DNA of 64,000 nucleotides from Chthonomonadales bacterium (GTDB lineage Bacteria; Armatimonadota; Chthonomonadetes; Chthonomonadales; CAJBBX01): the NCBI GenBank assembly GCA_020849275.1, contig JADLGO010000023.1:1-64000 (forward strand). The letters are read 5' to 3'. A program made the position numbers and the translations under genes. Below, piece after piece: positions 1 to 25,680 of the stretch (position 1 is the stretch's first letter; each line of letters begins with the position of its first letter). The notes below the pieces were generated by a model. The model had not been told where the DNA came from and ran no database searches. It saw nothing but the letters and a program-made list of their open reading frames with translations.

Positions 1-3000
1 GTTTCAATCCTCACCGGCCCCGAAGGGCCGGTGCAACCATGCCCCGCCAAGGAGAGGAGAGAGATGAGAGCAGTTTCAATCCTCACCGGCCCCGAAGGGC
101 CGGTGCACCTGGGGGGGGAGGAGCCCGTACTCGGCGAGCCCCGAGCGTTTCAATCCTCACCGGCCCCGAAGGGCCGGTGCACCATGCCTCCGCGCAGAAG
201 GATCTCCTCGATTTCCTGTTTCAATCCTCACCGGCCCCGAAGGGCCGGTGCAACTGGACCGGCGGGGCGCCACTGGGCAACAGCGACGAGTTTCAATCCT
301 CACCGGCCCCGAAGGGCCGGTGCAACTTCACGGTCGAAGTCCCGCTGCCGCCAACCGATAATGTTTCAATCCTCACCGGCCCCGAAGGGCCGGTGCAACA
401 TGGATGTTGGCGGTGCTGCTCGCCAGCGGTCGAGTTTCAATCCTCACCGGCCCCGAAGGGCCGGTGCAACCCTCTCGCAGGTCGGCCAGTTGCAGGTCCG
501 CCACCTGTTTCAATCCTCACCGGCCCCGAAGGGCCGGTGCAACTACGACGGCGTGAGCGACTGGGCCGCAGGCTCCGCGTTTCAATCCTCACCGGCCCCG
601 AAGGGCCGGTGCAACCGCCGGCACGACCCACGCGCCGACCCCCGCTTCGGCGTTTCAATCCTCACCGGCCCCGAAGGGCCGGTGCAACCATACGCCAGAT
701 CTGGATCGCGATGCCAACGGAGAACGTTTCAATCCTCACCGGCCCCGAAGGGCCGGTGCAACCCGGCTGGCCGTGACGCCCGCGTCCGCCAAACACAAGT
801 TTCAATCCTCACCGGCCCCGAAGGGCCGGTGCAACGCGTACGCGCATCTCGCGGAGGCGTTGCGCGCGGGCGTTTCAATCCTCACCGGCCCCGAAGGGCC
901 GGTGCACCCGGCCCACCAACAGACGCCTGGCTCCACGTCGCCATGTTTCAATCCTCACCGGCCCCGAAGGGCCGGTGCAACTGCCCGGGTTGGTTCGTCC
1001 CCGCCGCGCCCCCGACAACGTTTCAATCCTCACCGGCCCCGAAGGGCCGGTGCAACGGAACTCCTCCAACGGATCCAGTCCTTTTCACAGGTTTCAATCC
1101 TCACCGGCCCCGAAGGGCCGGTGCAACTTCGGCGTGGAGCCGCGAAGGCGCTCGCCCTCCTCGCCGGTTTCAATCCTCACCGGCCCCGAAGGGCCGGTGC
1201 AACTCCGCCACCCGGCGCAGATGCCGCGCGTGGCAGCGGTTTCAATCCTCACCGGCCCCGAAGGGCCGGTGCAACCCCACACCTGGGTGCCGTCCTGCGT
1301 CCGCCCGAAGTTTCAATCCTCACCGGCCCCGAAGGGCCGGTGCAACCTTTCGGGTACCGCATCTGGATCTCGGGCGCGCTGTCGTTTCAATCCTCACCGG
1401 CCCCGAAGGGCCGGTGCAACCTGGGCTATGCGGGTCGCTGTGGCGTGTCCAGACCGCGTTTCAATCCTCACCGGCCCCGAAGGGCCGGTGCAACGGGCTC
1501 GAGGCTCGCGTTCGGCAGTCGATGTCGTGGCCGTTTCAATCCTCACCGGCCCCGAAGGGCCGGTGCAACGCCATGCGGGAGCCATGCGATCCCATGAGGG
1601 AGCCGTGTTTCAATCCTCACCGGCCCCGAAGGGCCGGTGCAACCTCCGAGTTCGATGTCCACGTTGTTCGTGCCGTCGCCTCGTTTCAATCCTCACCGGC
1701 CCCGAAGGGCCGGTGCAACGGGATTCTGTATCGGTGGGTGAGGCGGAAGCGTGAGGTTTCAATCCTCACCGGCCCCGAAGGGCCGGTGCAACCACGCTCG
1801 CGGACGAGTGGCGCATGCTCTACACCGGCAAGTTTCAATCCTCACCGGCCCCGAAGGGCCGGTGCACCCCGGGATAATCCTCGCGGATCTCGGGTTCGGC
1901 GCCGTTTCAATCCTCACCGGCCCCGAAGGGCCGGTGCAACACGGATACGCAGGAGGACGACATCGAGAGCCTGGGGGTTTCAATCCTCACCGGCCCCGAA
2001 GGGCCGGTGCAACGAGCGCCGGGAGGCCGCCCGTCTCGCGGACATGGGCCGTTTCAATCCTCACCGGCCCCGAAGGGCCGGTGCAACCCCCGGATAGGGC
2101 GCCCACGTAAGGAGGGAACCCCATGTTTCAATCCTCACCGGCCCCGAAGGGCCGGTGCAACCTCTTCCAGTCCACGCAGCACGCGTCGCGAGTGAGCGCG
2201 TTTCAATCCTCACCGGCCCCGAAGGGCCGGTGCAACGCGCGCGGCATCCCGGTCGCGCGGGACGGAACATTCGTTTCAATCCTCACCGGCCCCGAAGGGC
2301 CGGTGCAACCCGCCACGCTCCTCAACGGATGGTTCGGTCTGCCGCGTTTCAATCCTCACCGGCCCCGAAGGGCCGGTGCAACGGCGCCGCCCACACCGCG
2401 CCCGCCGCCGCATCGACGTTTCAATCCTCACCGGCCCCGAAGGGCCGGTGCAACGCTCGTTGGGGAGGCCCTCGAACTGCTCCGGCCACGTTTCAATCCT
2501 CACCGGCCCCGAAGGGCCGGTGCAACGGCCGCCACCCGGCACCTGCTTATGATCGGAGACACGTTTCAATCCTCACCGGCCCCGAAGGGCCGGTGCAACG
2601 CCGGATCATCGGGAAGACGTCGTCGGCCCCGCCGTAGTTTCAATCCTCACCGGCCCCGAAGGGCCGGTGCAACTGGCGGGTATGTGCTCAGACGGCGAGT
2701 GCCACGCGTTTCAATCCTCACCGGCCCCGAAGGGCCGGTGCAACTATCGACCGCGTGAATCGCCAGCATACCCTGCAGAGTTTCAATCCTCACCGGCCCC
2801 GAAGGGCCGGTGCAACGAAGCGGTTGGTGCAGGCGGGCCAGGCCGATCTCGAGGTTTCAATCCTCACCGGCCCCGAAGGGCCGGTGCAACCGGGGCATCA
2901 TTCGCCCGCCGAGGAGCCAACAAGCGCGGTTTCAATCCTCACCGGCCCCGAAGGGCCGGTGCAACTGGTAGCACTCGGCCTCGCACACGCGGCCCAGCGA

Positions 3001-6000
3001 CCGTTTCAATCCTCACCGGCCCCGAAGGGCCGGTGCAACGGTCGCGGCGGCCAACCAGTTCGTGCGCTAGATATCCGTTTCAATCCTCACCGGCCCCGAA
3101 GGGCCGGTGCAACCTGGGTGAGGCCCAGATCGGGCTCGCCAGCGCGACGTTTCAATCCTCACCGGCCCCGAAGGGCCGGTGCAACCGGGACTCGACTCCC
3201 GCTGGTCGACGCTCTCAGAGTTTCAATCCTCACCGGCCCCGAAGGGCCGGTGCAACCTGGAACGCCAAGGGCGCGCCCCCGGCGGCCGCCCCAGGTTTCA
3301 ATCCTCACCGGCCCCGAAGGGCCGGTGCAACCCCGGATAGGTCCCTACAGCGCGGTCACGCGGTAGGGTTTCAATCCTCACCGGCCCCGAAGGGCCGGTG
3401 CAACGCGGGTGTTTCCCCTCGGCTCGTGATCCTCAGTGACAGGTTTCAATCCTCACCGGCCCCGAAGGGCCGGTGCACCGGCCTCGGTCGTCGGGGGCTC
3501 GGCGGCGGGGCTCGGTTTCAATCCTCACCGGCCCCGAAGGGCCGGTGCAACGACCTGGCGATGTCGCCAGACGCAGGCTCGTGGGCGAGTTTCAATCCTC
3601 ACCGGCCCCGAAGGGCCGGTGCAACCGGGCACATCCTCCGGGAGGTTGCCCGCCTCCCGGATGTTTCAATCCTCACCGGCCCCGAAGGGCCGGTGCACCC
3701 GTACAGGGTCCCTACAGCGCGATCACGCGGTAGGGTTTCAATCCTCACCGGCCCCGAAGGGCCGGGGCCACGGGCGTCGGACGTGACCGCCCTCGAGGAC
3801 GCATGGCGTTTCAATCCTCACCGGCCCCGAAGGGCCGGTGCAACGGGCGCAGCGCCCATAGGGGGCGCACCGAGAGCGGGCGTTTCAATCCTCACCGGCC
3901 CCGAAGGGCCGGTGCAACGACAGTTCGACGCGCACAGTGTACGGGAGAGGTTGCGGTTTCAATCCTCACCGGCCCCGAAGGGCCGGTGCAACCTGGAAGA
4001 CCACGTCGGGGCGGGTGCGCATGGCGGCGTTTCAATCCTCACCGGCCCCGAAGGGCCGGTGCAACCCGACGCAAGGCGGGCAGGGACGGGGCGAGCGGGC
4101 TGTTTCAATCCTCACCGGCCCCGAAGGGCCGGTGCAACCGGCGGCGGCGGTGACCCGACATGGCCGAGAATGAAAAAGTTTCAATCCTCACCGGCCCCGA
4201 AGGGCCGGTGCAACGGCGTATCTCGACAGGCTGTCTCGGCCAGAGTGAGGAGAGGTTTCAGTCCTCACCGGCCCCGAAGGGCCGGTGCAACCGGTCAGCC
4301 GCCGGGATCGCCGCGCCCGGCGGCGGCGGTGTTTCAATCCTCACCGGCCCCGAAGGGCCGGTGCAACGGCGGGACCCAGCTCCCGCTGGGGGACGCTCTC
4401 AGAGTTTCAATCCTCACCGGCCCCGAAGGGCCGGTGCAACGCCCGCGAGTCGGGCCTGCCGCAGCTGGAGGGTACGCTCGTTTCAATCCTCACCGGCCCC
4501 GAAGGGCCGGTGCAACTATACTACCAATGTAGTTAGGCACGAACGTTGAATAGTTTCAATCCTCACCGGCCCCGAAGGGCCGGTGCAACGTGCGCCCCCC
4601 ATGGGCGCTGCGCCCCACGCCGCGCGGTTTCAAGCCTCACCGGCCCCGAAGGGCCGGTGCAACCGCTTTGCGGAGAACGGCCTGATGCGCGGCCAGAATG
4701 TTTCAATCCTCACCGGCCCCGAAGGGCCGGTGCAACCGCCGTCACACGGCATGTGGATGGTAATCCATGCCTTGTTTCAATCCTCACCGGCCCCGAAGGG
4801 CCGGTGCAACGCCTTCCCTGTCGCCACGCTGCGATGGAGAACGTGTTGGTTTCAATCCTCACCGGCCCCGAAGGGCCGGTGCAACGGCGGGCGATCCGCC
4901 CGCCGAATCGCGGGAGAGGACGTTTCAATCCTCACCGGCCCCGAAGGGCCGGTGCACCGCGCGCACTGCTCGGCATCTAGTCGCGGAGTGAAGGGAGGTT
5001 TCAATCCTCACCGGCCCCGAAGGGCCGGTGCAACCTCGGCAGAGCCTGCCGATTCTCTGCGCGACGCGCAGGTTTCAATCCTCACCGGCCCCGAAGGGCC
5101 GGTGCACCGCTCTTCAACAAGGCGGTGGCCGACTACAACAATCTGTTTCAATCCTCACCGGCCCCGAAGGGCCGGTGCAACCCGCATGGCGCTTATCGCG
5201 TCTTCGGGCAACTCGATGTTTCAATCCTCACCGGCCCCGAAGGGCCGGTGCAACCCGATGCGCACGGCCGCAATCAAGCGGCACACGCGCGTTTCAATCC
5301 TCACCGGCCCCGAAGGGCCGGTGCAACGGCGAGGGCCTTCCCTGTCGCCACGCCGCGATTGATGTTTCAATCCTCACCGGCCCCGAAGGGCCGGTGCAAC
5401 GCGCGGGCTGGGTCCCCGAAGCGAGGGCGCTTCGGGGTTTCAATCCTCACCGGCCCCGAAGGGCCGGTGCAACCTCGGCGGGCAACAACCACACGCTGTC
5501 GGGCGCGTCGTTTCAATCCTCACCGGCCCCGAAGGGCCGGTGCAACATTCCCGCCGACATTTCCGTCGACCTCAGCGGGACCGTTTCAATCCTCACCGGC
5601 CCCGAAGGGCCGGTGCAACATCAGCAGTTGATGAAACGCGCGCACCGGATCGGGCGTGTTTCAATCCTCACCGGCCCCGAAGGGCCGGTGCAACTGCGAT
5701 TATGCACCAGGCGCGCCGCGTGGGCGACGTGTTTCAATCCTCACCGGCCCCGAAGGGCCGGTGCAACACCCGCTGCACGCGGGCGGGAAGATGCGCGGCA
5801 CCGTGTTTCAATCCTCACCGGCCCCGAAGGGCCGGTGCAACATGCCGATCCGGATGAGGTGTCGGTGGATTACACATCCGTTTCAATCCTCACCGGCCCC
5901 GAAGGGCCGGTGCAACGGTCCGCCACGTGCTCAGCCCGCGCGCCCGCCGGCTGTTTCAATCCTCACCGGCCCCGAAGGGCCGGTGCAACCCACGCTGGGG

Positions 6001-8560
6001 GAGAACCCCCCGTACCTGGCGTTGTTTCAATCCTCACCGGCCCCGAAGGGCCGGTGCAACCGCGTCGATCGACTCGGGCGCCGCGTAGCGGTGCCAGGTT
6101 TCAATCCTCACCGGCCCCGAAGGGCCGGTGCAACCTCCCAGGATGCACGCGCAAGGCACACCAGCTCCGTTTCAATCCTCACCGGCCCCGAAGGGCCGGT
6201 GCAACGGGAGCGTCCCCGTACACGGGGGCGCTTGTACGAGAAGTTTCAATCCTCACCGGCCCCGAAGGGCCGGTGCAACATGGCCTCGTACGAGGGCGCG
6301 GCCGCGAGCCTTCGTTTCAATCCTCACCGGCCCCGAAGGGCCGGTGCAACGAGGACGGGCGTCCCGTCCTGGACGCCCGACGCTACGTTTCAATCCTCAC
6401 CGGCCCCGAAGGGCCGGTGCAACAACATAGAGATGATCGGGGGCGTCAACTGCAATACAGTTTCAATCCTCACCGGCCCCGAAGGGCCGGTGCAACAGGG
6501 CGGCGAGCGCGCGCCAGCGCCTTCGGTTCCGTCGTTTCAATCCTCACCGGCCCCGAAGGGCCGGTGCAACCTCCGCCAGCCGGTGGACCACGCCGGATCC
6601 GATGCCGATGTTTCAATCCTCACCGGCCCCGAAGGGCCGGTGCAACTATGGGAGTGCAACCCGATTCTAGCGTGGGAACATGGTTTCAATCCTCACCGGC
6701 CCCGAAGGGCCGGTGCAACCATGGAGGCCTTGGAAGCGCTCCGCCGTGTTCGTCGCGTTTCAATCCTCACCGGCCCCGAAGGGCCGGTGCAACCATGGAG
6801 GCCTTGGAAGCGCTCCGCCGTGTTCGTCGCGTTTCAATCCTCACCGGCCCCGAAGGGCCGGTGCAACTTACGGCCGGCTTCGCGCCACCGGTTCTGCAGC
6901 TCCCGGTTTCAATCCTCACCGGCCCCGAAGGGCCGGTGCAACCGTTCGCGCCATCAAGGCGGTGCTCATCCGCTACATGTTTCAATCCTCACCGGCCCCG
7001 AAGGGCCGGTGCAACTGGCCAAATATTCATGTAGGCGGCGGAATCTATTCGTTTCAATCCTCACCGGCCCCGAAGGGCCGGTGCAACGACAGTCAACGCG
7101 CGTGATGAGTATTACACACAGGACGTTTCAATCCTCACCGGCCCCGAAGGGCCGGTGCAACACCCTGGTCGGCGACGACCAGAGCTACGCCGTAACGCGT
7201 TTCAATCCTCACCGGCCCCGAAGGGCCGGTGCAACTGGCCTGAAACGGCTGTCCGTGGCTGCAGTGCGTCAGGTTTCAATCCTCACCGGCCCCGAAGGGC
7301 CGGTGCAACTTCGACTGGGCGCGCACATTCGGCGAGGAGATGGCCAACGTTTCAATCCTCACCGGCCCCGAAGGGCCGGTGCAACCGCGACGGGCAGACG
7401 GCGAACCCTAAGCACCTGACGTTTCAATCCTCACCGGCCCCGAAGGGCCGGTGCAACGTGGACGACGGGCAGACGGCGACGTGCCGACTGGAGTTTCAAT
7501 CCTCACCGGCCCCGAAGGGCCGGTGCACCGAGGGGGTCGTCACGGACGCGCTTCGCCGCCTGGAGCGGTTTCAATCCTCACCGGCCCCGAAGGGCCGGTG
7601 CAACCATCATGGAGGAGCTCCAGGACGTGCGGACGCTCCCCATGTTTCAATCCTCACCGGCCCCGAAGGGCCGGTGCAACGACCAGTTGTTCCCGCGGTC
7701 GTGGTTGAGGTGATACGTTTCAATCCTCACCGGCCCCGAAGGGCCGGTGCAACCAGCTCCGCACCATCGTATACGCCAACTCGCTCGTCAAGTTTCAATC
7801 CTCACCGGCCCCGAAGGGCCGGTGCACCGGGACATAACCCTCCAACCAAGCCACGTTATCACGCAGTTTCAATCCTCACCGGCCCCGAAGGGCCGGTGCA
7901 ACGGGGCTGGTGTACCGCGTGTACAACGCGACCGCGCAGTTTCAATCCTCACCGGCCCCGAAGGGCCGGTGCAACACGCCCGACCTTGCGATCCGGCATC
8001 CGCGCTGGGCGGTTTCAATCCTCACCGGCCCCGAAGGGCCGGTGCAACCTGCTCAAGGCCGGAGCGCTGGTCTGTCCAGTGGCGTTTCAATCCTCACCGG
8101 CCCCGAAGGGCCGGTGCAACCGGCAGCACGATCGCCTGCTCCGCGACGGGCAGCGACGTTTCAATCCTCACCGGCCCCGAAGGGCCGGTGCAACGTCGGG
8201 ATGAGCGAGGACCAGACGCAAGCCAGGGCCGTTTCAATCCTCACCGGCCCCGAAGGGCCGGTGCAACTTGGAGTAACACAGGGAGCGACTCCCTGGCATC
8301 GAGTTTCAATCCTCACCGGCCCCGAAGGGCCGGTGCAACGCACGCTCCTGACGCTCGGCGATGATTACTGGCTGGTTTCAATCCTCACCGGCCCCGAAGG
8401 GCCGGTGCAACCTGCCCCTCGTACTCATGCGTGCGGCAGGCGAGCAGCCGTTTCAATCCTCACCGGCCCCGAAGGGCCGGTGCAACGCGTGCAGCGGTGG
8501 TCCGACCTGCTTACGCCGGAGAAGTTTCAATCCTCACCGGCCCCGAAGGGCCGGTGCAAC
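1..8560 (-). CRISPR. CRISPR array, 117 repeats, type I-C-like repeat, truncated at window start
   Basis: I located 117 copies of a 37-nt repeat (first at 1, last at 8524-8560) with 116 complete spacers; unit length is 71-76 nt and spacers average about 36-37 nt. On the plus strand each copy begins GTTTCAATCC and ends GGTGCAAC. On the minus strand it begins GTTGCACC, forms a 9-bp stem (CACCGGCCC pairing with GGGCCGGTG) closed by TTCG, and ends AGGATTGAAAC, which is the usual 3' end and so sets transcription leftward. Cas2 and the leader lie on the right, so the newest spacers are near 8524 and the oldest are at or beyond position 1. Ten copies end GTGCACC (73, 147, 872, 1832, 3443, 3663, 4922, 5072, 7493, 7792). 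Copies at 3735, 4255 and 4627 carry other changes. Cleavage at the stem base by Cas5c would leave the 11-nt 5' handle known for type I-C. Confidence 0.99.
6683..6830 (-). repeat. Tandem duplication of one repeat-spacer unit
   Basis: The 37-nt spacers at 6720-6756 and 6794-6830 are identical (both start CATGGAGGCC and end GTTCGTCGC), and the intervening repeat is consensus. The unit of 74 nt has therefore been duplicated in tandem, by recombination between repeats or by double capture of one protospacer. It is the only exact spacer duplication I noticed. Confidence 0.95.
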
Positions 8561-14569: not shown

Positions 14570-15790
14570 TCACTCCTCCTCGTTCCAGGCGCCCCACAGG
14601 GCGAGGCCGAACCCGTCGTCGCGGTTGTTGGCGCGCCGTCGTCCCGGCACGCTCGTCTCCTCGAGGTCGCTGACCGGGGCGAGCCAGCCCCCCTCCTCTC
14701 CCTCCGTGGCCAGGCAGGCGGCGTCGCCGTCGACCTTCTCGAAGAAGTACACGGCGCCGGCCGGCGCGCAGTAGCGCAGGGGCTTCGGGCCGCCGTGCGT
14801 CAGGTCCCAGCCGCTCAGGGGCTGGCGGCGCGGCACGGCGGCGGCCACGAGGCGCAGCCTCACGCCGAGCGGCTTGCCGTTCGGACCGGGCGGGGCGCCC
14901 TCGCGGGTCGTCCTGTCGATCCAGCCGGGCTTCCAGCCATGAGTGAAGACGGCGGGCGTGGCCAGGAGCAGGCGCACGCGGCGCGCGCCGGCCACAGCGC
15001 GGGCGAGCTCCGCCGGGCATCGCGGCCACGCGTCGGGCTCCGCGCCGGCGACCAGCGCGAGGCGGCTCTCGCCGCCGAGCGTGCCCGCTCCGCGCGCCAC
15101 GTCGGCCTTGGTCAGGCCCGCCGCGCGGCACAGCAGGGAGTACTCGACGGTCGGCGCGCCGTGCTCGTCGGCCTCGCGGCGCTCGAACGCGACCATCCTC
15201 GTGCTGAAAAGCGCGTGCTCGGCGGCCGCGCCGCGCTCGTGGTCCATCTGGATGTGCACCCGCTCGTCGACGAGAGGCGCGAGGTCGGGCACCAGGTCGG
15301 CGGTCCCGGGCAGGTCTCCGCGGAGCCAGCGCTCCACGTTCGCCCAGGTCCAGTGGCCGTACCCGCGCGCGGGCTTCGCGTCGGCGGTGATTCGCATCGG
15401 GCGCATGCCGCCGGGAATGTCGGTTCCGGCCTGTCCGAGCGCGGCCGCGCTCCACGGGCGGAGCGGGATCGGGTCGCCGATCGCGCCGCCGTCGTCGCCG
15501 CCGCCGCCGCGCCTCGGCACGAGGACGTCGGCCGGCGCGGGGAGGATGGGCTCGTCTTCGCGGCAGAGGAGCGGCCCGCGGATCGCGACGCTGGCCGACA
15601 GATCGGCCCACTCCGCTGCGCTGGCGCACCCGCGCGCGTATCCGGCCAGCGTGCGCAGGAAGCCGGCCAGGGTGGAGGGCATCGGGACGGGCAGCGTGTC
15701 GGCGCGGGCCCCGGCCTCTGCGCCGAAGGGCCGCCCGTCGCGGAAGAGGAGCGTGTCCAGCCCGCGGACACGCAGGGTCATGTCGCTCAT
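14570..15790 (-). CDS. cmr3: Type III-B Cmr3 (Cas5-group RAMP)
   Basis: A 406-aa protein. It opens MSDMTLRVRGLDTLLFRDGR, the usual Cmr3 beginning (a FRDGRPF-type motif), then PMPSTLAGFLRTLAGY. Cmr3 binds the crRNA 5' handle and pairs with Cmr2 in the head of the Cmr complex. The ATG overlaps the cmr2 stop (15787-15790); a second ATG three codons later could also serve. The poly-Gly insert RRGGGGDDGG around residue 95 is probably a flexible loop. Confidence 0.94.
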   Translation of the reverse strand: MSDMTLRVRGLDTLLFRDGRPFGAEAGARADTLPVPMPSTLAGFLRTLAGYARGCASAAEWADLSASVAIRGPLLCREDEPILPAPADVLVPRRGGGGDDGGAIGDPIPLRPWSAAALGQAGTDIPGGMRPMRITADAKPARGYGHWTWANVERWLRGDLPGTADLVPDLAPLVDERVHIQMDHERGAAAEHALFSTRMVAFERREADEHGAPTVEYSLLCRAAGLTKADVARGAGTLGGESRLALVAGAEPDAWPRCPAELARAVAGARRVRLLLATPAVFTHGWKPGWIDRTTREGAPPGPNGKPLGVRLRLVAAAVPRRQPLSGWDLTHGGPKPLRYCAPAGAVYFFEKVDGDAACLATEGEEGGWLAPVSDLEETSVPGRRRANNRDDGFGLALWGAWNEEE

Positions 15791-17337: not shown

Positions 17338-18539
17338 GGCTGAGCTCCAATGGAGATCGGCTCCGCGCCCCACCGGAGCTTGATGGCCGCCCTCACGGCG
17401 GCGAGCGGGTCGTTCACCCCGAGGTCGCGGAGCACGGGCTCGTTCGGCGGCACGCGAAGGGAGACGGCGCGGGCCTCCTTCTTCACGCGAACCCCGGCCG
17501 GCGCGGGGGCTCGCAGGGCGAGCACCACGGGCCGGACCTCGCCATCGTCGAAGGCGACCGGCCGGAGGATCACGGGCGAGGCCATCCGCCCGGTCTTCTC
17601 GGACACGATCTCTCCGAAGAACGGGGCGGAGGGGAGCCGTTGGTAGTTCAGCGGGAGCCCGAGGAAGGGCTTGCAGAGCTCCACCGGGTCGTCGGAGGGC
17701 CGCCAGCGAACCAGGGTCTGCCGGTAGTCCGACCACTTGCCTCCGGACATGGGCTCGTAGGAGACGCTCCCGACGTGGCCCTTGCGGAAGGCTGCCCAGA
17801 ACTCGGCGAGCTCGCGCCACGCGTCATTTACCGGTGAGCTCGTTCGGGCGAGCCAGCCGCCGCTGAGCGTGGGGTGTTGCGGAGGGCCCGGGGCCGCCTG
17901 CCCGGCCAGCTCGTCGAGCCACCCGGCGAGGTCGGGCTCACCCGGCGGCGGCGCGAACCTCGCCGGCGGCTCCTCCATGCGGAGCGCCCCGCAGCCGCGC
18001 CGCGTTCGGGCTCCGATTCCCCCGAGCGTCAGCCACGCCTTCAGCGCGCGCCGAACGCCGGCAACGGCGTCGTCGTCCGGATCGCGCAGCGCCACCCCGA
18101 GGGTGAACTCCACGCCCGTCCGCGCCGCCGCCTCCGGGATGCCCGCCTGCTGCGCCTGGAACGGCCAGACGAAGTACCCGATGCCGGGGCCGGTCCCGGG
18201 TCGCGCTCGCCCGGCGATCTGGCCCGCAACCTGCTCCTTGCCGGGCTCCACGTCCGTCACCGTGATCGCTACGCGCCCCGGCGTCCCCGTGTCGCCCCAG
18301 AGGGCGGCCTCGTGCTCGTGCAGCTTCTCCGGCGTGGCGAACGCCCCGCCCGCGGTCGCTCGCCACCAGAAGCGCAGGTGGCCGCGGATGGCGGCCGGAC
18401 GGATGGTGCAGACGCGGTCCACCTCGCGCGTCGCGAACCCCCCGCCGAACATCGCCGTGATCACCTTGACGCGATAGGTGTCCACCCGATCCCCCTCCGG
18501 CTCGCGCCAGTCCGGGGGGTCAACCAGCTTCCGGCTCAT
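17334..18539 (-). CDS. cmr1: Type III-B RAMP protein Cmr1
   Basis: A 401-aa RAMP protein. The N-terminus holds YRVKVITAMFGGGFATREVD and IRPAAIRGHLRFWWRATAGG, the typical Cmr1 signature. RTRRGCGAL near residue 180 is the glycine-rich RAMP loop. The second RAMP half includes FLGLPLNYQ and SPVILRPV. Cmr1 sits at the 3' end of the crRNA in the Cmr complex. Its ATG overlaps the cas4 stop as ATGA (18536-18539), which ties the first cmr gene to the last I-C-specific gene. It overlaps cmr2 by ATGA at the other end. Confidence 0.94.
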   Translation of the reverse strand: MSRKLVDPPDWREPEGDRVDTYRVKVITAMFGGGFATREVDRVCTIRPAAIRGHLRFWWRATAGGAFATPEKLHEHEAALWGDTGTPGRVAITVTDVEPGKEQVAGQIAGRARPGTGPGIGYFVWPFQAQQAGIPEAAARTGVEFTLGVALRDPDDDAVAGVRRALKAWLTLGGIGARTRRGCGALRMEEPPARFAPPPGEPDLAGWLDELAGQAAPGPPQHPTLSGGWLARTSSPVNDAWRELAEFWAAFRKGHVGSVSYEPMSGGKWSDYRQTLVRWRPSDDPVELCKPFLGLPLNYQRLPSAPFFGEIVSEKTGRMASPVILRPVAFDDGEVRPVVLALRAPAPAGVRVKKEARAVSLRVPPNEPVLRDLGVNDPLAAVRAAIKLRWGAEPISIGAQP

Positions 18540-19174
18540 GGCCCCTCCTCGTCGTTCACCTCATACAGGTCGCGCACGTGCCAGTCGAGCCGTGCCTGCG
18601 CCAGCACCTCCGGCACGCAGGCGTCGGCCAGCGAGCAGTTGCGGCAGCGCGCGTCGGCGACGGGCGCCGGAAGCTCGCCGGTTCGGAGCATCGCGCGCAC
18701 GGCCGCCACGCATGTCAGCATGGCGGAACGAAGCGGCTCCGTCAGAAGCACTTCGCGCCGCCGCCGCGTCGAGATGTGGTAGACCGCGCCTGACTCCACG
18801 CGGCGGCCGAGCATCTCCTCCAGGCAGACCGCCTGCGCGCAGAGTTGCAGGTCGTCGTGGATCCTCTGGCGCCGCGGACCATGCTTGTACTCCACGGGAT
18901 AGACCGTTCCGTCGGCCCGGAACTCGACGACATCGGCGCGGCCGATCAGCCCGACGGCGTCGGACCAGACCGGCAGCGCTCGTTCGAGGCGCGCACCGTC
19001 GGCACACTCCCAGCTCACCGTGTCGGCCCGCTCGTGCGCGGCCGCTCCCCGCAGAGTGAAGACGTTGTCATCGAACACCTGCTCCACGTGGATCAGCCCG
19101 CACTGCCGCGGGCAATACGAGTAGTGCTCGATCGCCGATATGGGCACGGCGTCGTCGTCAGCGGTCACAGTCAT
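18536..19174 (-). CDS. cas4: CRISPR-associated exonuclease Cas4
   Basis: A 212-aa RecB-like nuclease. ISAIEHYSYCPRQCGLIHVE gives the first Fe-S cysteine, GRADVVEF and PVEYKHG are the PD-(D/E)XK acidic and Lys residues, and CRNCSLADAC supplies the other three cysteines of the 4Fe-4S cluster. In I-C systems Cas4 trims prespacers and selects those with a PAM. It starts 70 nt after cas7, with AAGGGGG upstream of the ATG, and is coupled to cmr1 downstream. Its normal partner cas1 is displaced by about 8.5 kb. Confidence 0.96.
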   Translation of the reverse strand: MTVTADDDAVPISAIEHYSYCPRQCGLIHVEQVFDDNVFTLRGAAAHERADTVSWECADGARLERALPVWSDAVGLIGRADVVEFRADGTVYPVEYKHGPRRQRIHDDLQLCAQAVCLEEMLGRRVESGAVYHISTRRRREVLLTEPLRSAMLTCVAAVRAMLRTGELPAPVADARCRNCSLADACVPEVLAQARLDWHVRDLYEVNDEEGP

Positions 19175-19244: not shown

Positions 19245-20168
19245 CTAGCCGGCGAGCCGGCTCAGCGTAACGCCCCGGGGCATGTCCGCGTCGTCCACCG
19301 TGACCTGGTAGTCCTCGAAGCGGCGCGGCGCCGCCGCGCCCGGCCGCGCCGACACCCCGATGCGCGCGAAGAGCTCGTGGGCGGCGGCACTCCCCAGCGC
19401 GTCCTCGTGCGAGAACACGTAGAGCCCCCGGCAGGCCATCATTCCCCGGCTCGCGGAGCGGTCCAGATCCCACATGCCCAGGAGCGCCTTCCAGAAGAGC
19501 TCCAGGTCCTCTCGCCTGACGCCCGTCTTCCGGGCGAAAGGCGCCGAGTAGAACCCGTGGCCCACGTAGAGGCCATAGGGCACCAGCGGCTTGCTGCCCA
19601 TCTCCGTCCGCTTGCCCTTGCCCCGCGCCTCTTCGCCCGCCTCCACCTCCACCACCTCGGCGTCCTCGGGCTTGGTGATCGCCACGCGCGTGATGCCCAC
19701 GTCCATAGGGAAGACCGGCGACACCGACCGCGCGAACGTGAGCTGGATCGGGCCGCGGACCTGCCCCGCGTTCACGCCGGTGGTCATCACCGCGCCGAAC
19801 ATGCGGATGTCGTAGTAGGTCGCGCACATGCGCTGGCGCACCCTGTCCACGTCCTCGCGCTTCTGCTTGCTGCCGGTCGACTTGATCTTCTCGTCGTCGT
19901 AGGCCCGCTGGTGGAGCGTGTTCAGCGCGAGGCCCTCGTCGTTGACGTAGATGGCGTAGCCGTCCTCGCCCCCGCGCGTCAGCGCGACCATGTTGCGCAC
20001 CTTGCGCTTGAGGCAGACGTCCGTCACAAGGCCCTGCATCGTCTCCGGGTCGACGCGCGGCATGTTGCCGGCGTCGGGGTCGCCGTTGGGATTGCCGTCG
20101 GCCACGTCGAACACCAGCACGAAGTCGTGCCGGCGCTCGGCGTCGGCGCACGCCGTGAAGTCAGGCAT
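19245..20168 (-). CDS. cas7: Type I-C Cascade backbone Cas7 (Csd2)
   Basis: A 307-aa protein. FVLVFDVADGNPNGDPDAGN (residues about 16-35) followed by MPRVDPETMQG is the canonical Csd2/Cas7 motif, and VSPVFPMDVGITRVAI is typical of the family. Cas7 copies form the crRNA-binding backbone of the I-C Cascade. The ATG overlaps the cas8c stop by 8 nt, so the two are coupled. Confidence 0.97.
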   Translation of the reverse strand: MPDFTACADAERRHDFVLVFDVADGNPNGDPDAGNMPRVDPETMQGLVTDVCLKRKVRNMVALTRGGEDGYAIYVNDEGLALNTLHQRAYDDEKIKSTGSKQKREDVDRVRQRMCATYYDIRMFGAVMTTGVNAGQVRGPIQLTFARSVSPVFPMDVGITRVAITKPEDAEVVEVEAGEEARGKGKRTEMGSKPLVPYGLYVGHGFYSAPFARKTGVRREDLELFWKALLGMWDLDRSASRGMMACRGLYVFSHEDALGSAAAHELFARIGVSARPGAAAPRRFEDYQVTVDDADMPRGVTLSRLAG

Positions 20169-21924
20169 CGGTGTCCTCCGTATTGTCGGTGTCGGCCAGC
20201 GCCTCGGCCACCGCCGCGTCCTCCGCCGTCGCGGCGCCGCGAGCGCGGCGCTCCACGGCCTCCTTCGCGGCGAGGCGGTCCGCCGCGCGCTGGTGGTAGT
20301 AGCCGAGTGAGAAGAGGCCCTGCTCGCGCAGGTTCAGCGAGGTGGGAAAGGCCTTCAGCGGCGCCGCGATCTCCGCCAGGCGGTTCTGCAGCGCGTTGTA
20401 GGCCGGCTCGCTCTTCTTGCGGATCTTGGGCAGGTGGGCCTTGTTGGCGTGCGCCAGCAGCACGCCGAACGCGACGGCCGGTGCCGAGGAGGCGGCGCCA
20501 TAGTAGCGGCCCACGATCGTGACGTTCGTCTTGCCCAGGGCGGTGCGCTGCACCGCCTCGAGCTCCGCCAGCAGCCGCCCGCAGAGGTACGCGGGCGCGG
20601 CGCTGGCCTCATCCAGCTCAGCCATCGGTCTGGGTTCCTCCGTCCGGTGCAGGGAGAGCACGGCCTTGATCAGGGCCGCGCGGGGATAGGTAACGCGCCC
20701 CTCGGCGCGGTTGCGCTGCACGGCGCGCTCCAGGAGCGCCATGGGCAGCGGCTCGCGGTGCAGCGCGGCGAGCAGCAGGTCGCGCGGCACCGTGGGGCGC
20801 ATCTCTTTGCGCGCGTCGCGGTAGAGGCTGGCGGCGAGGGGATAGACGCCGAAGAACCGCTCCTCGCGGCCTTCCGGGCTCACCACGCGCTGTGCGTCGA
20901 ACCAGGCGGCCAGGCTCCGGCGGGCCTCGCCCACCGTCGTCGACAGCCAGTCGCGCACGACGGCCCGCCCGGCGCTGCCGGAGAGGGCGAACGCGTGGAA
21001 CGGATCGTCGTCGCGCACCGTCAGGCGGCGCCCGGTGCGCAACGAATCGAGCATGTCGCGGACGCGCGCCTCGTCCGGCATGTCGAGAAGGTCCGCCGTC
21101 TCGTCGTCGGCCCCCTGGCTGGTCCAGAACACGTAGACCAGGCTCTGGCCGAGGGTGATGTGCGTGCGCCTGCCGGCGATGAGGCGGTTGAGCGCCTTGG
21201 TGAAGCGCTCGGCCGCTTCGGCGGAGATCGGCGAGGTTTCGGCCCGCTCGAGCCCGTACGACTCGAACGCTTCGCAGTTCGCCGAGACCAGCGCGACCCC
21301 GCTGCTCTTCCCGCCGGGTACGCCCTTGACCATGCCCGGCATGCTCTGGACGACGGGCCCGAAGCGGCCCGTCACCAGGCACTGGCTCACCATCGCCTGG
21401 CCGGCGGCCGGCTCCGGGCGGGCCGCGCCCGCCCAGAAGTCGCGCACCGCCGGCAGGTCCGCGGGCCACGTATCGCCCACGTGAAAGACGACGAGGTCGG
21501 AGTCGCCCATGTCCTCGGGCAGCGGATGCGTCTCGGGCGACCACGCGTCGAGGAACGCGAGGACGGCGCGCACGGCCGCCTCGCCGGTGTCGTCGACACA
21601 CCGCGCGACCAGGTCACGGAACGCGGCGCGCTTGGCGGCCACGTTCCGGTCGACCCTCGGCGGCGCGGCCGGCTTGCCGAACACGTAGGCGGGCGTGTCG
21701 GCCAGGAGGATCGCGCGCACGCCCGAGGTGCGGCCCACGTAGGGAACGAGCCGATCGATGCCCTTGCGCTTCGCCGCGTCGCCGCCGAGGGACGTGAACC
21801 CCAGGAATCCGCCCGCGTCGTCCAGCTCGACCACCCAGCGGACAGGGCGGCGGTCGTACATGGGCGGCGGGAGCTCCTCGCCAAGGATTGCCGGCGCGTC
21901 CTTATACAACTGCTGCAGGATCAT
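20161..21924 (-). CDS. cas8c: Type I-C large subunit Cas8c (Csd1)
   Basis: A 587-aa protein from the ATG at 21924 (MILQQLYKDAPAILGEELPP), which fits the usual Csd1 start; an ATG four codons upstream is also in frame. Other features are VRWVVELDDAGGFLGF near the N-terminus and the GKSSGVALVSANCEAFESYG segment around residue 200. Cas8c recognises the PAM and provides internal small-subunit copies; I did not try to place the internal start. It overlaps cas5c by 23 nt and cas7 by 8 nt. Confidence 0.95.
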   Translation of the reverse strand: MILQQLYKDAPAILGEELPPPMYDRRPVRWVVELDDAGGFLGFTSLGGDAAKRKGIDRLVPYVGRTSGVRAILLADTPAYVFGKPAAPPRVDRNVAAKRAAFRDLVARCVDDTGEAAVRAVLAFLDAWSPETHPLPEDMGDSDLVVFHVGDTWPADLPAVRDFWAGAARPEPAAGQAMVSQCLVTGRFGPVVQSMPGMVKGVPGGKSSGVALVSANCEAFESYGLERAETSPISAEAAERFTKALNRLIAGRRTHITLGQSLVYVFWTSQGADDETADLLDMPDEARVRDMLDSLRTGRRLTVRDDDPFHAFALSGSAGRAVVRDWLSTTVGEARRSLAAWFDAQRVVSPEGREERFFGVYPLAASLYRDARKEMRPTVPRDLLLAALHREPLPMALLERAVQRNRAEGRVTYPRAALIKAVLSLHRTEEPRPMAELDEASAAPAYLCGRLLAELEAVQRTALGKTNVTIVGRYYGAASSAPAVAFGVLLAHANKAHLPKIRKKSEPAYNALQNRLAEIAAPLKAFPTSLNLREQGLFSLGYYHQRAADRLAAKEAVERRARGAATAEDAAVAEALADTDNTEDTDA

Positions 21925-22561
21925 CGGCTCCCCCATACAGGTCGTCGTAGAGCTCGGGCGGCACGCGCAGCACGCCGCGGTCCAGCCGCGCCTCGAAGAA
22001 GCGCGGCCGGTTGCCGGCGCCGCCGGCTCCGTAGGCGATGTCGAACAGCATGAGGCCCAGGTCGGAGCTCACATCGACGGGCTTCTCCGAACCGTCGACG
22101 GGAGCGAAGTGGGCTGCGAACTCGCGGCAGCCCAGGTACGGCCGGTGGAAGCACTGGCCGTCGCTGACGCGGCGGCGGAACTGGTCGCGGTACTTGGCGG
22201 GGTCGTCCGGCGAGCCGGGCGGGACCCACACGTCGGCGCGGATGACGTACGCGACGTCGCGCAGGCCGAGCGTGTGGCGCTGCGCGCGGTCCTCGCCGAT
22301 GCGCAGGCCGGCGACGCGGGGCGAGGCCCGCGCCGTCACCTCGTTGCGCAGGATGGAGAAGTGCCGGATGCGCTCGAGGACGGCGATCTCGCGGATCTGC
22401 CAGCGCATGGGCTTGTGGAAGCAAATGGCCTCGAGGATGCCGCGGGCTGCCGACGGTGTCGGCACCTCGTAGGACACCCGTTCGACCTTGGCCTCGGGCC
22501 GGGTGAAGCAGGCGTACTCACCCCAGACCTTGACCGCGACAGGCGGGTAGCGTCCGCTCAA
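21902..22561 (-). CDS. cas5c: Type I-C Cas5c, pre-crRNA endoribonuclease
   Basis: A 219-aa protein, normal for Cas5c/Cas5d. VKVWGEYACFTRPEAKVERV and YEVPTPSAARGILEAICFHK are the family motifs. In I-C systems Cas5 replaces Cas6 and cuts each repeat at the base of its hairpin. Here it is the only candidate processing enzyme for both modules. The reading frame has no suitable ATG and starts with TTG at 22561, with GGAAGGAG 9 nt upstream. The start lies 81 nt after the frameshifted gene at 22643. Confidence 0.95.
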   Translation of the reverse strand: MSGRYPPVAVKVWGEYACFTRPEAKVERVSYEVPTPSAARGILEAICFHKPMRWQIREIAVLERIRHFSILRNEVTARASPRVAGLRIGEDRAQRHTLGLRDVAYVIRADVWVPPGSPDDPAKYRDQFRRRVSDGQCFHRPYLGCREFAAHFAPVDGSEKPVDVSSDLGLMLFDIAYGAGGAGNRPRFFEARLDRGVLRVPPELYDDLYGGADDPAAVV

Positions 22562-22642: not shown

Positions 22643-23007
22643 TTAGAACGGCCAGAGAACCGCGTTCTGGGCCGCTCCGGCGATCTGCCGCAGGAGCCGC
22701 GTGCCGGCGTCGCGGTCCCTGGCGGCGACAACGGCGACGAACACGCCCCCGACGGGGGCGGCCTCACGGTAGAACGCGCGCCACTGGTCGTGGGTGTGCT
22801 GCTCCGTGAGGCTGTCGGAGGTCTCGGCCTCTGCGATGAGGAAGCACCCATTGCGGCTGCTCGTCGCATCCGGGATGTAGCCGGCGATGGGGTCGGGCGG
22901 CGTGTAGCCGGGCAGGTGGCCGCGGCAGTCGCCGAGCAGCCGCGTCGGCTCATCTCGGCGACTGCCGCGGCCACGAGTCGATCGTGGCCGGGACGCGAGG
23001 AACTCAT
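22643..23007 (-). pseudogene. Small nuclease-like hypothetical protein, frameshifted
   Basis: A strong ribosome-binding site (AAGGAGGAG) and ATG at 23007 begin MSSSRPGHDRLVAAAVAEMS, but that frame loses similarity after residue about 22. The conserved-looking remainder is in another frame: HLPGYTPPDPIAGYIPDATS, then FLIAEAETSDSLTEQHTHDQW, ending AVLWPF at the stop at 22643. The span is 365 nt, one base short of 122 codons, so a single-base loss explains the break. The second part resembles small restriction-endonuclease-fold proteins with an acidic E-x-E-T-x-D core; the fold is my inference. It is the first gene after the operon promoter and lies directly before cas5c. The break coincides with a perfect 21-bp inverted repeat. 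Confidence 0.6.
22916..22974. repeat. Perfect 21-bp inverted repeat, 17-nt loop
   Basis: Arms at 22916-22936 and 22954-22974 are exact reverse complements over 21 bp (the left arm starts GTGGCCGCGG and ends GTCGCCGAG), separated by 17 nt. It lies inside the frameshifted gene, between its intact N-terminal codons and its intact C-terminal codons. A perfect hairpin of this size in coding sequence is unusual and may mark a templated quasipalindrome mutation or an assembly artefact. Confidence 0.97.
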
Positions 23008-23263
23008 CTGCTCCTCCTTGCCGTTTCCGGCGGACAGGAGGGCCGTGGTATACTTGGCTGTAGCCCGCGTTCCGACGGCCCTCGTTGGTTCGCGCCGGGG
23101 CAGGTGAGTTGCCGCTCACCTGCCCCTCTCGGCTTCTGCCCGGCGTTCGGGTTCAGCCGAGCCGCTAGCATGTTGCAACGCTCATCGAGCCCGCTCCCGG
23201 CGCCGCCGCTTGTGCGGCGGACGGTGACTGACTCGATGCACCTGTGCCCGCTTCAAACAGGCA
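23008..23263 (-). other. Structured 5' untranslated region of the Cascade/Cmr operon
   Basis: No gene is visible in this stretch. If transcription starts near 23263 it becomes a leader of about 255 nt. It has two perfect stems: 12 bp at 23097-23108 with 23115-23126 (loop 6 nt) and 9 bp at 23038-23046 with 23075-23083. Neither is followed by a U-run, so they do not look like ordinary terminators. They could be a regulatory leader; the function is unknown. Confidence 0.45.
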
Positions 23264-23270
23264 CGCGTCA

Positions 23271-23300
23271 ATTGTACACCGCCGTGCGCCATTATGTCAA
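23271..23300 (-). promoter_or_regulatory. Sigma70-like promoter for the Cascade/Cmr/adaptation operon
   Basis: On the minus strand TTGACA (23300-23295) and TACAAT (23276-23271) are separated by 18 nt. This is close to the bacterial consensus and stands out in such GC-rich DNA. It lies between cas3 and the next gene, so it would drive the nuclease-like gene, cas5c through cas2, and possibly the array, separately from cas3. Confidence 0.7.
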
Positions 23301-23373
23301 CACGTGGATTGAGCCGCGCAGGCAGCATAAACTTGGATGTGCCGCGCTGGGAGCATGAACGGCCTGCGGTTCG

Positions 23374-25680
23374 TCACGGCATCAGATCCGCCGGGTCGCG
23401 GGCGACGGCGCCGCCGATGCCCCGCACCCGGTGGTAGGGCCCGCGCCACACGTAGAGCTCGTCCGGCACCAGCGCCTCGACCAGGGCGCCCTGCGCCTCG
23501 AGGTCGCGGCGATAGACCGATACGGAAAGCGGCTGGATGCGCTGCCAGAGGTCGCGCGTCATGAGCCGGGCTTCCGCCGCGCGGCGGATCGCCGTGATGA
23601 GCGCGTCGAAGCCCTCCTTGTCGAGGGAGGCGTCCGCGCAGCCGGGACGGTGGTAGGGCACGAGCACAGGCACGGTGTCGTTGGCGATCAGGCGCATCCT
23701 GGCGGCGACCTCGGGGAAGTCACCGCGCGCGCGCAGGTCCTGCACACCCTCGCGGTCGAGCCCCGCCGCGCCAAGGCGCTCGTAGAGGTCGGCGAAGTAG
23801 CGCGTCGCCACGTCGGGCGCGTCGAGATCCAGGTCAGGCTGCGCGGCGAGCCGCCTGCGGGCCACTTCGAGCGCTGTGCGGTACTCGCCCGGCGGAACGG
23901 ACCCCTCCTCCGGTTGGAAGACGACGACCTCGCTCTCGCCCCTCTCGCGGCGCCCCTCGCGGTTGCACCGGCCCGCCGCCTGGACGATGCGGTCCAGCGG
24001 GCCCATGGCGCGGTAGGCGAACGGGAAGTCAAGGTCCACGCCGCACTCGATCACCTGCGTCGCGACCAGGAGCACCGGCGGACCGCCGGCCTCTCGCTCC
24101 GCCTTGAGCGCGGCCCCCACCGCCTCGATCACCTGGCGCCGGTGCGAGCCGCACAGCAGTGTCGAGAGGTGGCGCACGTCGCCGCCCAGGGCATCCACCA
24201 CGGCGAGGGCGTCCTTCTTCGTGTTGAGGACCGCGACGCAGGAGCGGTCCCTCGCCCGCATGTGGTCCGCCAGGCGCCGCCAGTCCCACGGGTCCGGCTC
24301 CACGCGATAGGTGACGCGGCGCAGCGCGCGGAAGTGCGAGGCGGCCTCGGGCACGATGGGCACGACCGCCGACAGGCCGCGCAGGTACGGGCTATCGCCC
24401 TCCAGCGCCGGCAGCGTTGCGGTGCAGAGGACGACCGTCGCGCCGTAGTGCTGCACGAGCTCGCGCAGGCCGCTGACGATGGGCGCGAGCAGCGCCGCCG
24501 GCAGCGTCTGGACCTCGTCGAGCACGATCACGCTCTGCGCCAGGTTGTGCAGCTTGCGGCAGCGGGCCGTGCGGTTCGCGAAGAGGCTCTCGAAGAGCTG
24601 GACGGTGGTCGTGACCACGAGAGGCGCGTCCCAGTTCTGGGCCGCCATGCGCCGCGCGCGCTCGCGCTCGTCGTCGTCGGCGCCGCCGGCGCGCGGCTCC
24701 ATCGCGGACTGGTGCTCGAGGATCCCCTCGTCCCCCAGGATGTCTCGGAACACGCCCGCCGTCTGGTCGATGATGCTGGTGTAGGGGATAGCGTAGACGA
24801 TCCGCTCCCGGCGGCGGACCGCGGCGTGCTCCAGCGCGAACGCCAGCGACGAGCGCGTCTTTCCGCCTCCCGTGGGAACCACCAGCGCGAAGAAGCCCGG
24901 ATCGCGGCCGCCCGCCTCGACGCAGGCCTCGTAGACCTCGCGACGGACCCGGTTGACGGCGGAGTCATCGGCGCGCGCGGTCTCGGCGTCCGCGCTGGTC
25001 CGGATCCGGAGGGCCTCGCGCCAGCGCTCGAGGACGTTGCGCAGGGCGAGAGGTGCCCTCGTGGCGGCTTGCGCAGGCCAGAAGTGCCGCTCCGTGTCCA
25101 GGCAGTCCGCGTCGACCAGGCAGGAGAAGAGCCAGCGCGTCCGCATCTCCAGGAACCGCGCCCGCTCGCCCCTCTCCCCGGCAACGGCCTCGATTCCCGG
25201 CACGCCGGCCGGCGGCGGCTGCGAGAGAGCGGTCAGCTTCTCGCGGGCGCGCCGGATGGCGGCGGCGACCTCGGCGCGGCCGTCGGCCTCTGCCAGCGCC
25301 TCTTTCAGCCGGTGGGTGGCGGTCAGGCCGCCGTGGTGCCCCTGAACGCAGGCCGCGATCAGGCCGCGCGGACCCGCGGGCAGCGCCTCCAGCGCGAGCA
25401 CGGCGCCGGCCGCCCGGTGCTCCGCGGAGCCCGGCCGCGGGCCGGGACGTCCGGCCCGCCGCGCCTCGTCGCATCGGTGGAGGTAATCCTGGAAGGCGTC
25501 GGAGAACTTGCCGACGTCGTGAAGCCACCCGCACCAGGCGCCGAGGTCTACGGCGCCGAACGTGGCGGCGAAGCCGGCGGCAAGGTCCGCGACGGCCTGG
25601 GCGTGTTGGCTCAGGCCGTGCCACCGCCGGGGCTCGGCGTCGGGCGGCGTGTGGGCATAGTACTCGCGCCGATCGCTCAT
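23374..25680 (-). CDS. cas3: Cas3 nuclease-helicase (HD domain fused to SF2 helicase)
   Basis: A 768-aa protein. The N-terminal HD nuclease has GLSQHAQAV, WLHDVGKFSDAF and VQGHHGGL (residues about 20-140). The helicase has Walker A VVPTGGGKTRSSLAF, DEVQ box VIVLDEVQTLPA, SAT-like LCTATLP, and QVIECGVDLDFPFAYR plus QAAGRCNREGRR for motifs V and VI. Cas3 is recruited by the I-C Cascade and degrades target DNA. The ATG at 25680 has AGGAG 5 nt upstream. It is the first gene of the locus and is separated from the rest by a 366-nt gap that holds a strong promoter. Confidence 0.97.
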   Translation of the reverse strand: MSDRREYYAHTPPDAEPRRWHGLSQHAQAVADLAAGFAATFGAVDLGAWCGWLHDVGKFSDAFQDYLHRCDEARRAGRPGPRPGSAEHRAAGAVLALEALPAGPRGLIAACVQGHHGGLTATHRLKEALAEADGRAEVAAAIRRAREKLTALSQPPPAGVPGIEAVAGERGERARFLEMRTRWLFSCLVDADCLDTERHFWPAQAATRAPLALRNVLERWREALRIRTSADAETARADDSAVNRVRREVYEACVEAGGRDPGFFALVVPTGGGKTRSSLAFALEHAAVRRRERIVYAIPYTSIIDQTAGVFRDILGDEGILEHQSAMEPRAGGADDDERERARRMAAQNWDAPLVVTTTVQLFESLFANRTARCRKLHNLAQSVIVLDEVQTLPAALLAPIVSGLRELVQHYGATVVLCTATLPALEGDSPYLRGLSAVVPIVPEAASHFRALRRVTYRVEPDPWDWRRLADHMRARDRSCVAVLNTKKDALAVVDALGGDVRHLSTLLCGSHRRQVIEAVGAALKAEREAGGPPVLLVATQVIECGVDLDFPFAYRAMGPLDRIVQAAGRCNREGRRERGESEVVVFQPEEGSVPPGEYRTALEVARRRLAAQPDLDLDAPDVATRYFADLYERLGAAGLDREGVQDLRARGDFPEVAARMRLIANDTVPVLVPYHRPGCADASLDKEGFDALITAIRRAAEARLMTRDLWQRIQPLSVSVYRRDLEAQGALVEALVPDELYVWRGPYHRVRGIGGAVARDPADLMP

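What the first reader, a model, noticed from the sequence alone, without database searches (positions are those of the whole stretch)
22643..23007. Unnamed nuclease-like gene at the head of the operon, broken at a perfect palindrome
A good ribosome-binding site and N-terminus are separated from a conserved-looking C-terminus by a frameshift, exactly where a perfect 21-bp inverted repeat lies (22916-22974). Quasipalindrome correction by template switching can create both a perfect hairpin and a frameshift. If the gene is intact in relatives it may be an accessory of this hybrid system.
Basis: partly seen in the sequence, partly recalled or inferred. Interest (0 to 1): 0.65.

Follow-up and report, generated by a model that had tools for sequence, protein, structure and literature searches.

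The report
Broken CRISPR accessory gene beside self-targeting guide
A small nuclease-like gene at the head of a CRISPR operon has been broken where one half of a DNA hairpin was apparently copied from the other, and beside it lies something more informative: a worn-down CRISPR guide that appears to steer the CRISPR complex onto this operon's own promoter, a way of self-control not previously listed for type I-C systems.

Summary
Both arms of a perfect 21-bp inverted repeat (22916-22936/22954-22974) are present. It is by far the longest in 64 kb, and the gene is out of frame exactly across the second arm. Only one other copy was found among 291 Armatimonadota genomes: G113, contig JANXNV010000262.1. 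It is intact, 41% identical, and sits at the same place between cas3 and cas5c. Profile comparison links both to a small PD-(D/E)XK-type family with the catalytic Lys replaced (IPD...EAE). So this is a real but rare CRISPR accessory gene, inactivated here (or misassembled) by a quasipalindrome/template-switch event.

The unexpected part is the 366 bp before the gene. In the window and in eight other Armatimonadota type I-C loci, this cas3-cas5c gap carries a degenerate CRISPR-repeat tail and a pseudo-spacer that matches a PAM-flanked site in the same gap, usually at a promoter. Mismatches fall on positions 6 and 12, the signature of Cascade pairing. This matches published CreA/CreR guides. CreR autorepression is listed for I-B, I-E and V-A; I did not find I-C. 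The downstream cargo gene varies: this gene, an HNH, an HTH, others, or none. Most likely the gene is cargo in a guide-autorepressed effector operon. Whether it is a toxin is open.

The parts
23374..25680 (-). cas3 (type I-C), upstream neighbour
   Evidence: PADLOC Cas3c E=3e-185
23323..23359 (-). target site 1: TTC PAM (23359-23357) + protospacer starting ATGCT, in tandem 28-bp repeat 23305-23360
23295..23331 (-). target site 2: TTT PAM (23331-23329) + protospacer starting ATGCT; its far end overlaps the -35 hexamer
   Evidence: most of the first 23 positions match the pseudo-spacer, mismatches include positions 6, 12 and 18; 1/500 shuffles as good
23271..23300 (-). sigma-70 type promoter TTGACA-18-TACAAT (11/12)
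   Evidence: 0.0 expected in shuffles; homologous TTGACA-17-TATACT in L014
23172..23208 (-). degenerate CRISPR repeat (psi-R1); 3' tail ...GATGAGCGTTGCAAC matches the crRNA 5' handle of the array repeat imperfectly
   Evidence: alone not significant in the window (p 0.12), significant in L014 (0/1000 shuffles) at the aligned position
23136..23171 (-). pseudo-spacer (psi-S) ATGCTAGCGGCTCGGCTGAACCCG...
23097..23126 (-). 12-bp hairpin with CGGCAA loop, same loop and place in L014 with different stem
23039..23084 (-). second leader stem (GAGGGCCGT...ACGGCCCTC), stem changed but kept in L014
22937..23007 (-). gene X, 5' part (N-frame) with RBS AAGGAGGAG just upstream
22954..22974 (-). palindrome arm 1 (coding in frame, probable template)
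22916..22936 (-). palindrome arm 2 (frame breaks here, probable copied arm)
22643..22936 (-). gene X, 3' part (C-frame): GYIPD...LIAEAET...LTEQHT..QW..F, conserved with L014
22606..22637 (-). 13-bp G+C hairpin after the X stop codon
21902..22561 (-). cas5c
20161..21936 (-). cas8c
19245..20168 (-). cas7c
1..8560 (-). CRISPR array, 117 repeats GTTGCACCGGCCCTTCGGGGCCGGTGAGGATTGAAAC (source of the handle comparison)

Best explanation
Gene X encodes a ~120-aa PD-(D/E)XK-type nuclease relative that is optional cargo, inserted between cas3 and cas5c of an Armatimonadota type I-C locus. It lies in a transcription unit whose promoter is apparently silenced by the locus's own effector. A degenerate repeat plus pseudo-spacer just upstream of X would yield a crRNA-like RNA; Cascade loaded with it would bind PAM-flanked, partly matching sites at the unit's promoter and repress it (CreR-like autorepression of X-cas5c-cas8c-cas7c...). 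When effector is scarce, or occupied by ordinary crRNAs or anti-CRISPRs, repression lifts. In this genome X itself has been inactivated: one arm of an imperfect inverted repeat inside the gene was rewritten from the other by a template switch, leaving a perfect 21-bp palindrome and a shifted frame. Shown: palindrome, frame break, intact homologue in the same place, promoter, guide and target matches across nine loci. Inferred: RNA production, repression, nuclease activity, mutational mechanism.
For: Intact homologue between cas3 and cas5c. Motif and profile link to small proteins with canonical GYVPD...GEAKT (probability 97.7, E 2.5e-12). Palindrome statistics and 104 vs 105 nt. Of 49 other cas5c loci with cas3 directly upstream, 32 have gaps under 40 bp and 11 have gaps >=160 bp. 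A perfect GGATTGAAAC handle upstream of cas5c occurs in 8 loci, all among the >=160-bp ones. In nine loci (window, L107/L014, L076, L093, L113, L119, L121, L126, L129) the pseudo-spacer's best PAM-flanked match is equalled by only 0 to 4 of 500 shuffles. In seven of them no other start position in the gap does as well. Matches per position over the nine: 1-5 and 7-11 in 7-9 of 9, position 6 in 1 of 9, position 12 in 3 of 9. Published CreA pairs through nt 1-5 and 7-11 with a TTC PAM; positions 6 and 12 do not pair (PMC8501985). L093 has guide and promoter directly before cas5c without any cargo ORF, pointing to autorepression of the effector genes.
Against: In the window the handle is degenerate (GTTGCAAC vs ATTGAAAC; p 0.12 alone) and the seed has extra mismatches at 7 and 9, so the guide may be decaying here. 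When CTC/CTT are also allowed as PAM, 6 other starts in the window gap score as well, all with CTC/CTT. No clear second pseudo-repeat. No RNA data. Two long-gap loci have a handle but no convincing target (L102, L077) and one has neither (L097, with undetermined bases). The AF2 model is weak (pLDDT 60) and the fold search empty. The catalytic Lys is Glu in both X proteins.
Confidence: 0.68

Rival explanations
1. CrePA-like reading: the guide represses X (and the HNH, HTH or other cargo in relatives) because the cargo is a protein toxin that is released when Cascade is inhibited; X was then inactivated in this lineage.
For: Cargo genes come first after the guide and differ between loci: an HNH nuclease (PF01844, E 3.5e-7) and an HTH protein with a weak YdaS-toxin match. 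In L119 a second promoter-like site precedes cas5c, and in L014 a terminator-like hairpin follows X. Protein-toxin modules of this logic exist (CrePA; PMC12737573).
Against: The guide occurs without cargo in L093. No KilA-N domain, the described CreP type, was found. The L014 terminator-like site is no more than shuffles give. No toxicity evidence for X; its active site lacks the Lys.
Confidence: 0.2
2. CreTA-like reading: a small RNA toxin lies between promoter and pseudo-repeat; X is incidental.
For: In the window, L014 and L076 there is room for a short element between the promoter and the pseudo-repeat.
Against: In L113 and L121 the pseudo-repeat begins close to the promoter, leaving little room. 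No convincing mini-ORF with RBS was seen by eye.
Confidence: 0.06
3. The palindrome and frameshift are a sequencing or assembly artefact (fold-back during library amplification of a G+C-rich hairpin); the gene is intact in the organism.
For: Very strong hairpin; draft assembly of 73 contigs; the neighbouring cas genes examined have open frames.
Against: Sequence continues normally on both sides with only one nt net difference from the homologue, unlike most chimeras. No reads to decide.
Confidence: 0.35
4. The hairpin stimulates a programmed -1 frameshift that joins the two frames.
For: The needed direction is -1 and a strong hairpin is present.
Against: The N-frame homology runs through arm 1 to the loop, so the change must come after the hairpin's 5' arm, not before it. 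No slippery heptamer seen upstream. The homologue is in one frame.
Confidence: 0.02

Closest known systems
CreR (cas-regulating RNA) autorepression, types I-B, I-E, V-A (PMC13131331, PMC12737573)
   Same: Degenerate mini-CRISPR next to cas genes, PAM-flanked partial match at the promoter of the effector genes
   Different: Type I-C in Armatimonadota, not in the subtypes listed; clear second pseudo-repeat not found; often followed by a cargo gene inside the repressed unit
CreA/CreTA (PMC8501985, PMC10097628)
   Same: Seed pairing at nt 1-5 and 7-11, TTC PAM, degenerate repeat; in Acinetobacter I-F it also lies in a ~400-bp gap after cas3
   Different: No RNA toxin recognised
CrePA (protein toxin repressed by CreA; PMC12737573)
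   Same: A protein gene directly downstream of a crRNA-like guide
   Different: No KilA-N protein; here PD-(D/E)XK-like, HNH, HTH or unknown proteins, co-directional with cas5c
Small PD-(D/E)XK-type proteins of rhizobial plasmids (WP_183596153.1, WP_172235216.1)
   Same: GY(I/V)PD...EA(E/K)T...L..HT..Q..AF motif and similar size; next to defence-like genes (DEAD/DEAH helicase, ParB-N, DGQHR)
   Different: Canonical E-A-K there, E-A-E in X; no CRISPR context there
Quasipalindrome template-switch mutation (PMC7202029, PMC8604942)
   Same: One arm made complementary to the other, frameshift result
   Different: Ancestor not available, so the tract of changes cannot be listed

Membership tests
CreR/CreA guide | degenerate CRISPR repeat outside the array keeping the crRNA 5' handle | tested here: met
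   8 loci with perfect GGATTGAAAC handle plus L107 with one mismatch; own arrays with that handle confirmed in 6 of 8 genomes. In the window itself degenerate (p 0.12)
CreR/CreA guide | pseudo-spacer with seed match at nt 1-5 and 7-11 to a PAM-flanked site, positions 6/12 free | tested here: met
   position profile over nine loci, shuffles; the window has extra mismatches at 7 and 9
CreR/CreA guide | target lies in a promoter of cas or toxin gene | tested here: met
   sites overlap or flank promoter-like sequences in window, L107, L093, L113, L119; promoters not mapped by experiment
CreR/CreA guide | second pseudo-repeat giving the 3' handle | tested here: inconclusive
   hairpins follow the pseudo-spacer but do not match the repeat
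CreR/CreA guide | RNA made and repression dependent on Cascade | not testable with these tools
   needs RNA data and genetics
CreTA | small RNA toxin between promoter and creA | tested here: inconclusive
   little room in L113 and L121; not excluded in window, L107, L076
CrePA | KilA-N protein toxin | tested here: not met
   no KilA-N in cargo proteins
PD-(D/E)XK nuclease | sequence or profile relationship to members | tested here: met
   hhalign probability 97.7, E 2.5e-12 to the GYVPD...GEAKT family; that family's own membership is inferred from its motif, not from a Pfam hit
PD-(D/E)XK nuclease | catalytic D...E-x-K | tested here: not met
   D...E-A-E in both X proteins
PD-(D/E)XK nuclease | alpha-beta core fold | tested here: inconclusive
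   secondary structure order fits, but pLDDT 60 and no PDB match
Quasipalindrome mutation | perfect inverted repeat coincident with the mutation, one arm ancestral | tested here: met
   the event itself is inferred

The most novel reading that the evidence does not exclude
The site between cas3 and cas5c in these I-C systems is a cassette where different nuclease-type and other proteins (PD-(D/E)XK-like, HNH, HTH, others) are kept silent by the effector's own crRNA-like guide and released when anti-CRISPRs disable the effector: a family of CRISPR-guarded protein effectors beyond the KilA-N type, with the window showing an inactivated member.
Probability: 0.2. Interest if true: 0.82.

Novelty: new variant of a known kind. 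Interest (0 to 1): 0.62.

Why it matters
It gives nine sequence-level examples of crRNA-like self-targeting guides in type I-C, each with its own pseudo-spacer and target, in a phylum not mentioned in the reviews read here. The shared position profile (1-5 and 7-11 match, 6 and 12 free) makes the claim easy to test. The cargo genes after the guide offer a direct way to ask whether CRISPR systems guard other protein toxins or simply carry accessory genes in an autorepressed operon. The broken gene shows how a template switch can silence such cargo in one step, if the assembly is right.

Tried and rejected
Pfam, NCBIfam and PADLOC on X: nothing. Weak hits in G000:C44 and other Armatimonadota genomes are short or have stops; treated as chance. 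Plasmid and phage tblastn with X and L014 X, viral contigs: nothing. Genome collection scan found only L014. A consensus probe written from memory was used only to find candidates; the claim rests on the real proteins it found. Foldseek: uninformative because the model is weak. Rfam: no family; the weak CRISPR-DR9 match in L014 (E 1.1) drew attention to the repeat tail. Programmed frameshift: rejected by homology through arm 1. First array pattern had a wrong length and found nothing; corrected.

Full report
What was claimed and whether it is there. The repeat is exact. It is the longest perfect inverted repeat with a loop up to 60 nt in the window, 21 bp against 15 bp for the next, and simulated sequences of the same dinucleotide make-up reach 12-14 bp. 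The loop adds five more pairs, and the structure is far more stable than shuffled sequence. The start codon has a good ribosome-binding site. The N-terminal and C-terminal halves are in different frames.

An intact copy exists. Searching 291 genomes of the same phylum gave one real homologue besides the window: G113:C144, full length, 41% identical, E 5e-22. It is a single open frame. The same locus came up from the GTDB contig collection as L014, contig JANXNV010000262.1, named Armatimonadetes bacterium. It lies between cas3 and cas5c of a type I-C locus, exactly as in the window. A profile of the enlarged family still finds only these two convincing members in the phylum. The distance from the conserved His codon to the GYIPD motif is 104 nt in the window and 105 nt in L014. 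The N-frame aligns through arm 1 up to the loop and the C-frame aligns from within arm 2 on, so arm 2 is where the frame is lost. This is what a template switch that rewrites arm 2 from arm 1 would leave (quasipalindrome mutation, PMC7202029). It also excludes a frameshift programmed at the 5' side of the hairpin. Without reads, a fold-back artefact of library preparation cannot be excluded.

What the gene encodes. No curated family matches. The two proteins share YIPD-x-T...IAEAE(T/S)...LTE.HT..QW..F...VGG.FVAVV. Two rhizobial plasmid proteins carry the same motif row with the canonical E-A-K: GYVPD...LIGEAKTR..L..AHT.DQI.AF. Profile-profile comparison with these and a haloarchaeal relative gives probability 97.7 and E 2.5e-12 over 107 columns. 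Pairwise BLAST to L132 shows nothing and to L134 E 6e-4, so the link rests on the profile. The AF2 model of the L014 protein has the right order of elements but low confidence, and the fold search found nothing. I call it a PD-(D/E)XK-type relative with the lysine replaced by glutamate; activity is unknown.

The surroundings. In 49 other Armatimonadota cas5c loci with cas3 directly upstream, 32 have a gap under 40 bp, 6 have 70-135 bp and 11 have 160 bp or more. The window and L014 have long gaps. Both gaps carry a strong sigma-70-type promoter, TTGACA-18-TACAAT and TTGACA-17-TATACT, and a leader in which hairpins are kept with changed stems. L014's leader also contains CGGTGAGGATTGAAA, identical to the 3' end of the array repeat of the window and of G113 (0 of 1000 shuffles as good). 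That 3' end is what becomes the 5' handle of a crRNA (established knowledge of type I-C processing).

The guide pattern is general. A perfect GGATTGAAAC handle upstream of cas5c occurs in eight of these loci, all of them with long gaps, and in none of the short-gap loci. Taking the sequence after the handle as a pseudo-spacer, nine loci (window, L107/L014, L076, L093, L113, L119, L121, L126, L129) have a match flanked by TTC or TTT in the same gap, equalled by 0 to 4 of 500 shuffles. In seven of the nine no other start position in the gap does as well, in L113 one does, and in the window six do, all with the laxer CTC/CTT flank. Across the nine, positions 1-5 and 7-11 match in 7 to 9 loci, position 6 in one and position 12 in three. 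Published CreA guides pair at nucleotides 1-5 and 7-11 beside a TTC PAM, and positions 6 and 12 do not take part (PMC8501985). In Acinetobacter I-F a creTA was found in a ~400-bp gap after cas3 (PMC10097628), the same kind of place. That TTC is also the type I-C PAM is from my own knowledge.

The window's own guide. By alignment with L014 it is at 23179-23136. Its handle is degenerate and not significant alone. Its pseudo-spacer ATGCTAGCGGCTCGGC matches two tandem 28-bp repeats upstream of the promoter (23305-23360), beside TTC and TTT. The second match agrees at most of the first 23 positions, with 6, 12 and 18 among the mismatches, and reaches into the -35 box. With extra mismatches at 7 and 9 the guide may be weaker or decaying here.

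Cargo. Behind the guide lie different small genes: X in the window and L014, an HTH protein in L076, an HNH protein in L113 (PF01844), a small protein of shared sequence (PGIV...) in L121, L126 and L129, another in L119, none in L093. G113 has both a locus with X (C144) and one with the guide directly before cas5c (C145 = L093). The L093 case favours CreR-type autorepression of the effector genes as the common function, with the cargo as passengers under the same control. The alternative, that the cargo is the guarded toxin (CrePA-like), is not excluded, and I put it at about 0.2.

Novelty. Reviews read here list CreR for I-B, I-E and V-A (PMC13131331) and 'Type I and V-A' in general (PMC12737573), and ask whether CrePA-like systems with other targets exist. 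I found no I-C case in the held library, which lacks most subscription papers. I therefore file the guide element as a new variant of a known kind, the X gene as a rare accessory, and the palindrome as an ordinary if striking mutation or an artefact.

Noticed in passing
window 1-8560: CRISPR array with 117 repeats at the window edge; two neighbouring spacers (between repeats at 6683, 6757 and 6831) are identical.
   Followed up: no
window 14570-19174 (- strand): Cas4, Cmr1, Cas10 and Cmr3 follow cas7c, so I-C and III-B genes run in one direction.
   Followed up: partly
window 23305-23360: Tandem 28-bp repeat just upstream of the promoter; each copy carries one PAM-flanked match to the pseudo-spacer, like a double operator.
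   Followed up: yes
window 23039-23126; L014 2490-2600: Leader hairpins conserved with changed stems between the two X-bearing loci (CGGCAA loop kept); L076 has a similar layout and shares TTTACGCCC with L014. Possible structured RNA with its own function.
   Followed up: partly
L113 (G073:C171), L076 (G055:C34), L121, L126, L129, L119: Other small genes at the same cas3-cas5c site: HNH, HTH (weak YdaS toxin match), a PGIV family, an unknown protein.
   Followed up: partly
L132 3968-4387, L133 3962-4381: Rhizobial plasmid relatives of X sit in a conserved row with DEAD/DEAH helicase, ParB-N, DGQHR and radical SAM genes that looks like a defence cluster.
   Followed up: no
L093 (G113:C145): Second I-C locus in the same genome has a guide and promoter directly before cas5c with no cargo gene.
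   Followed up: yes
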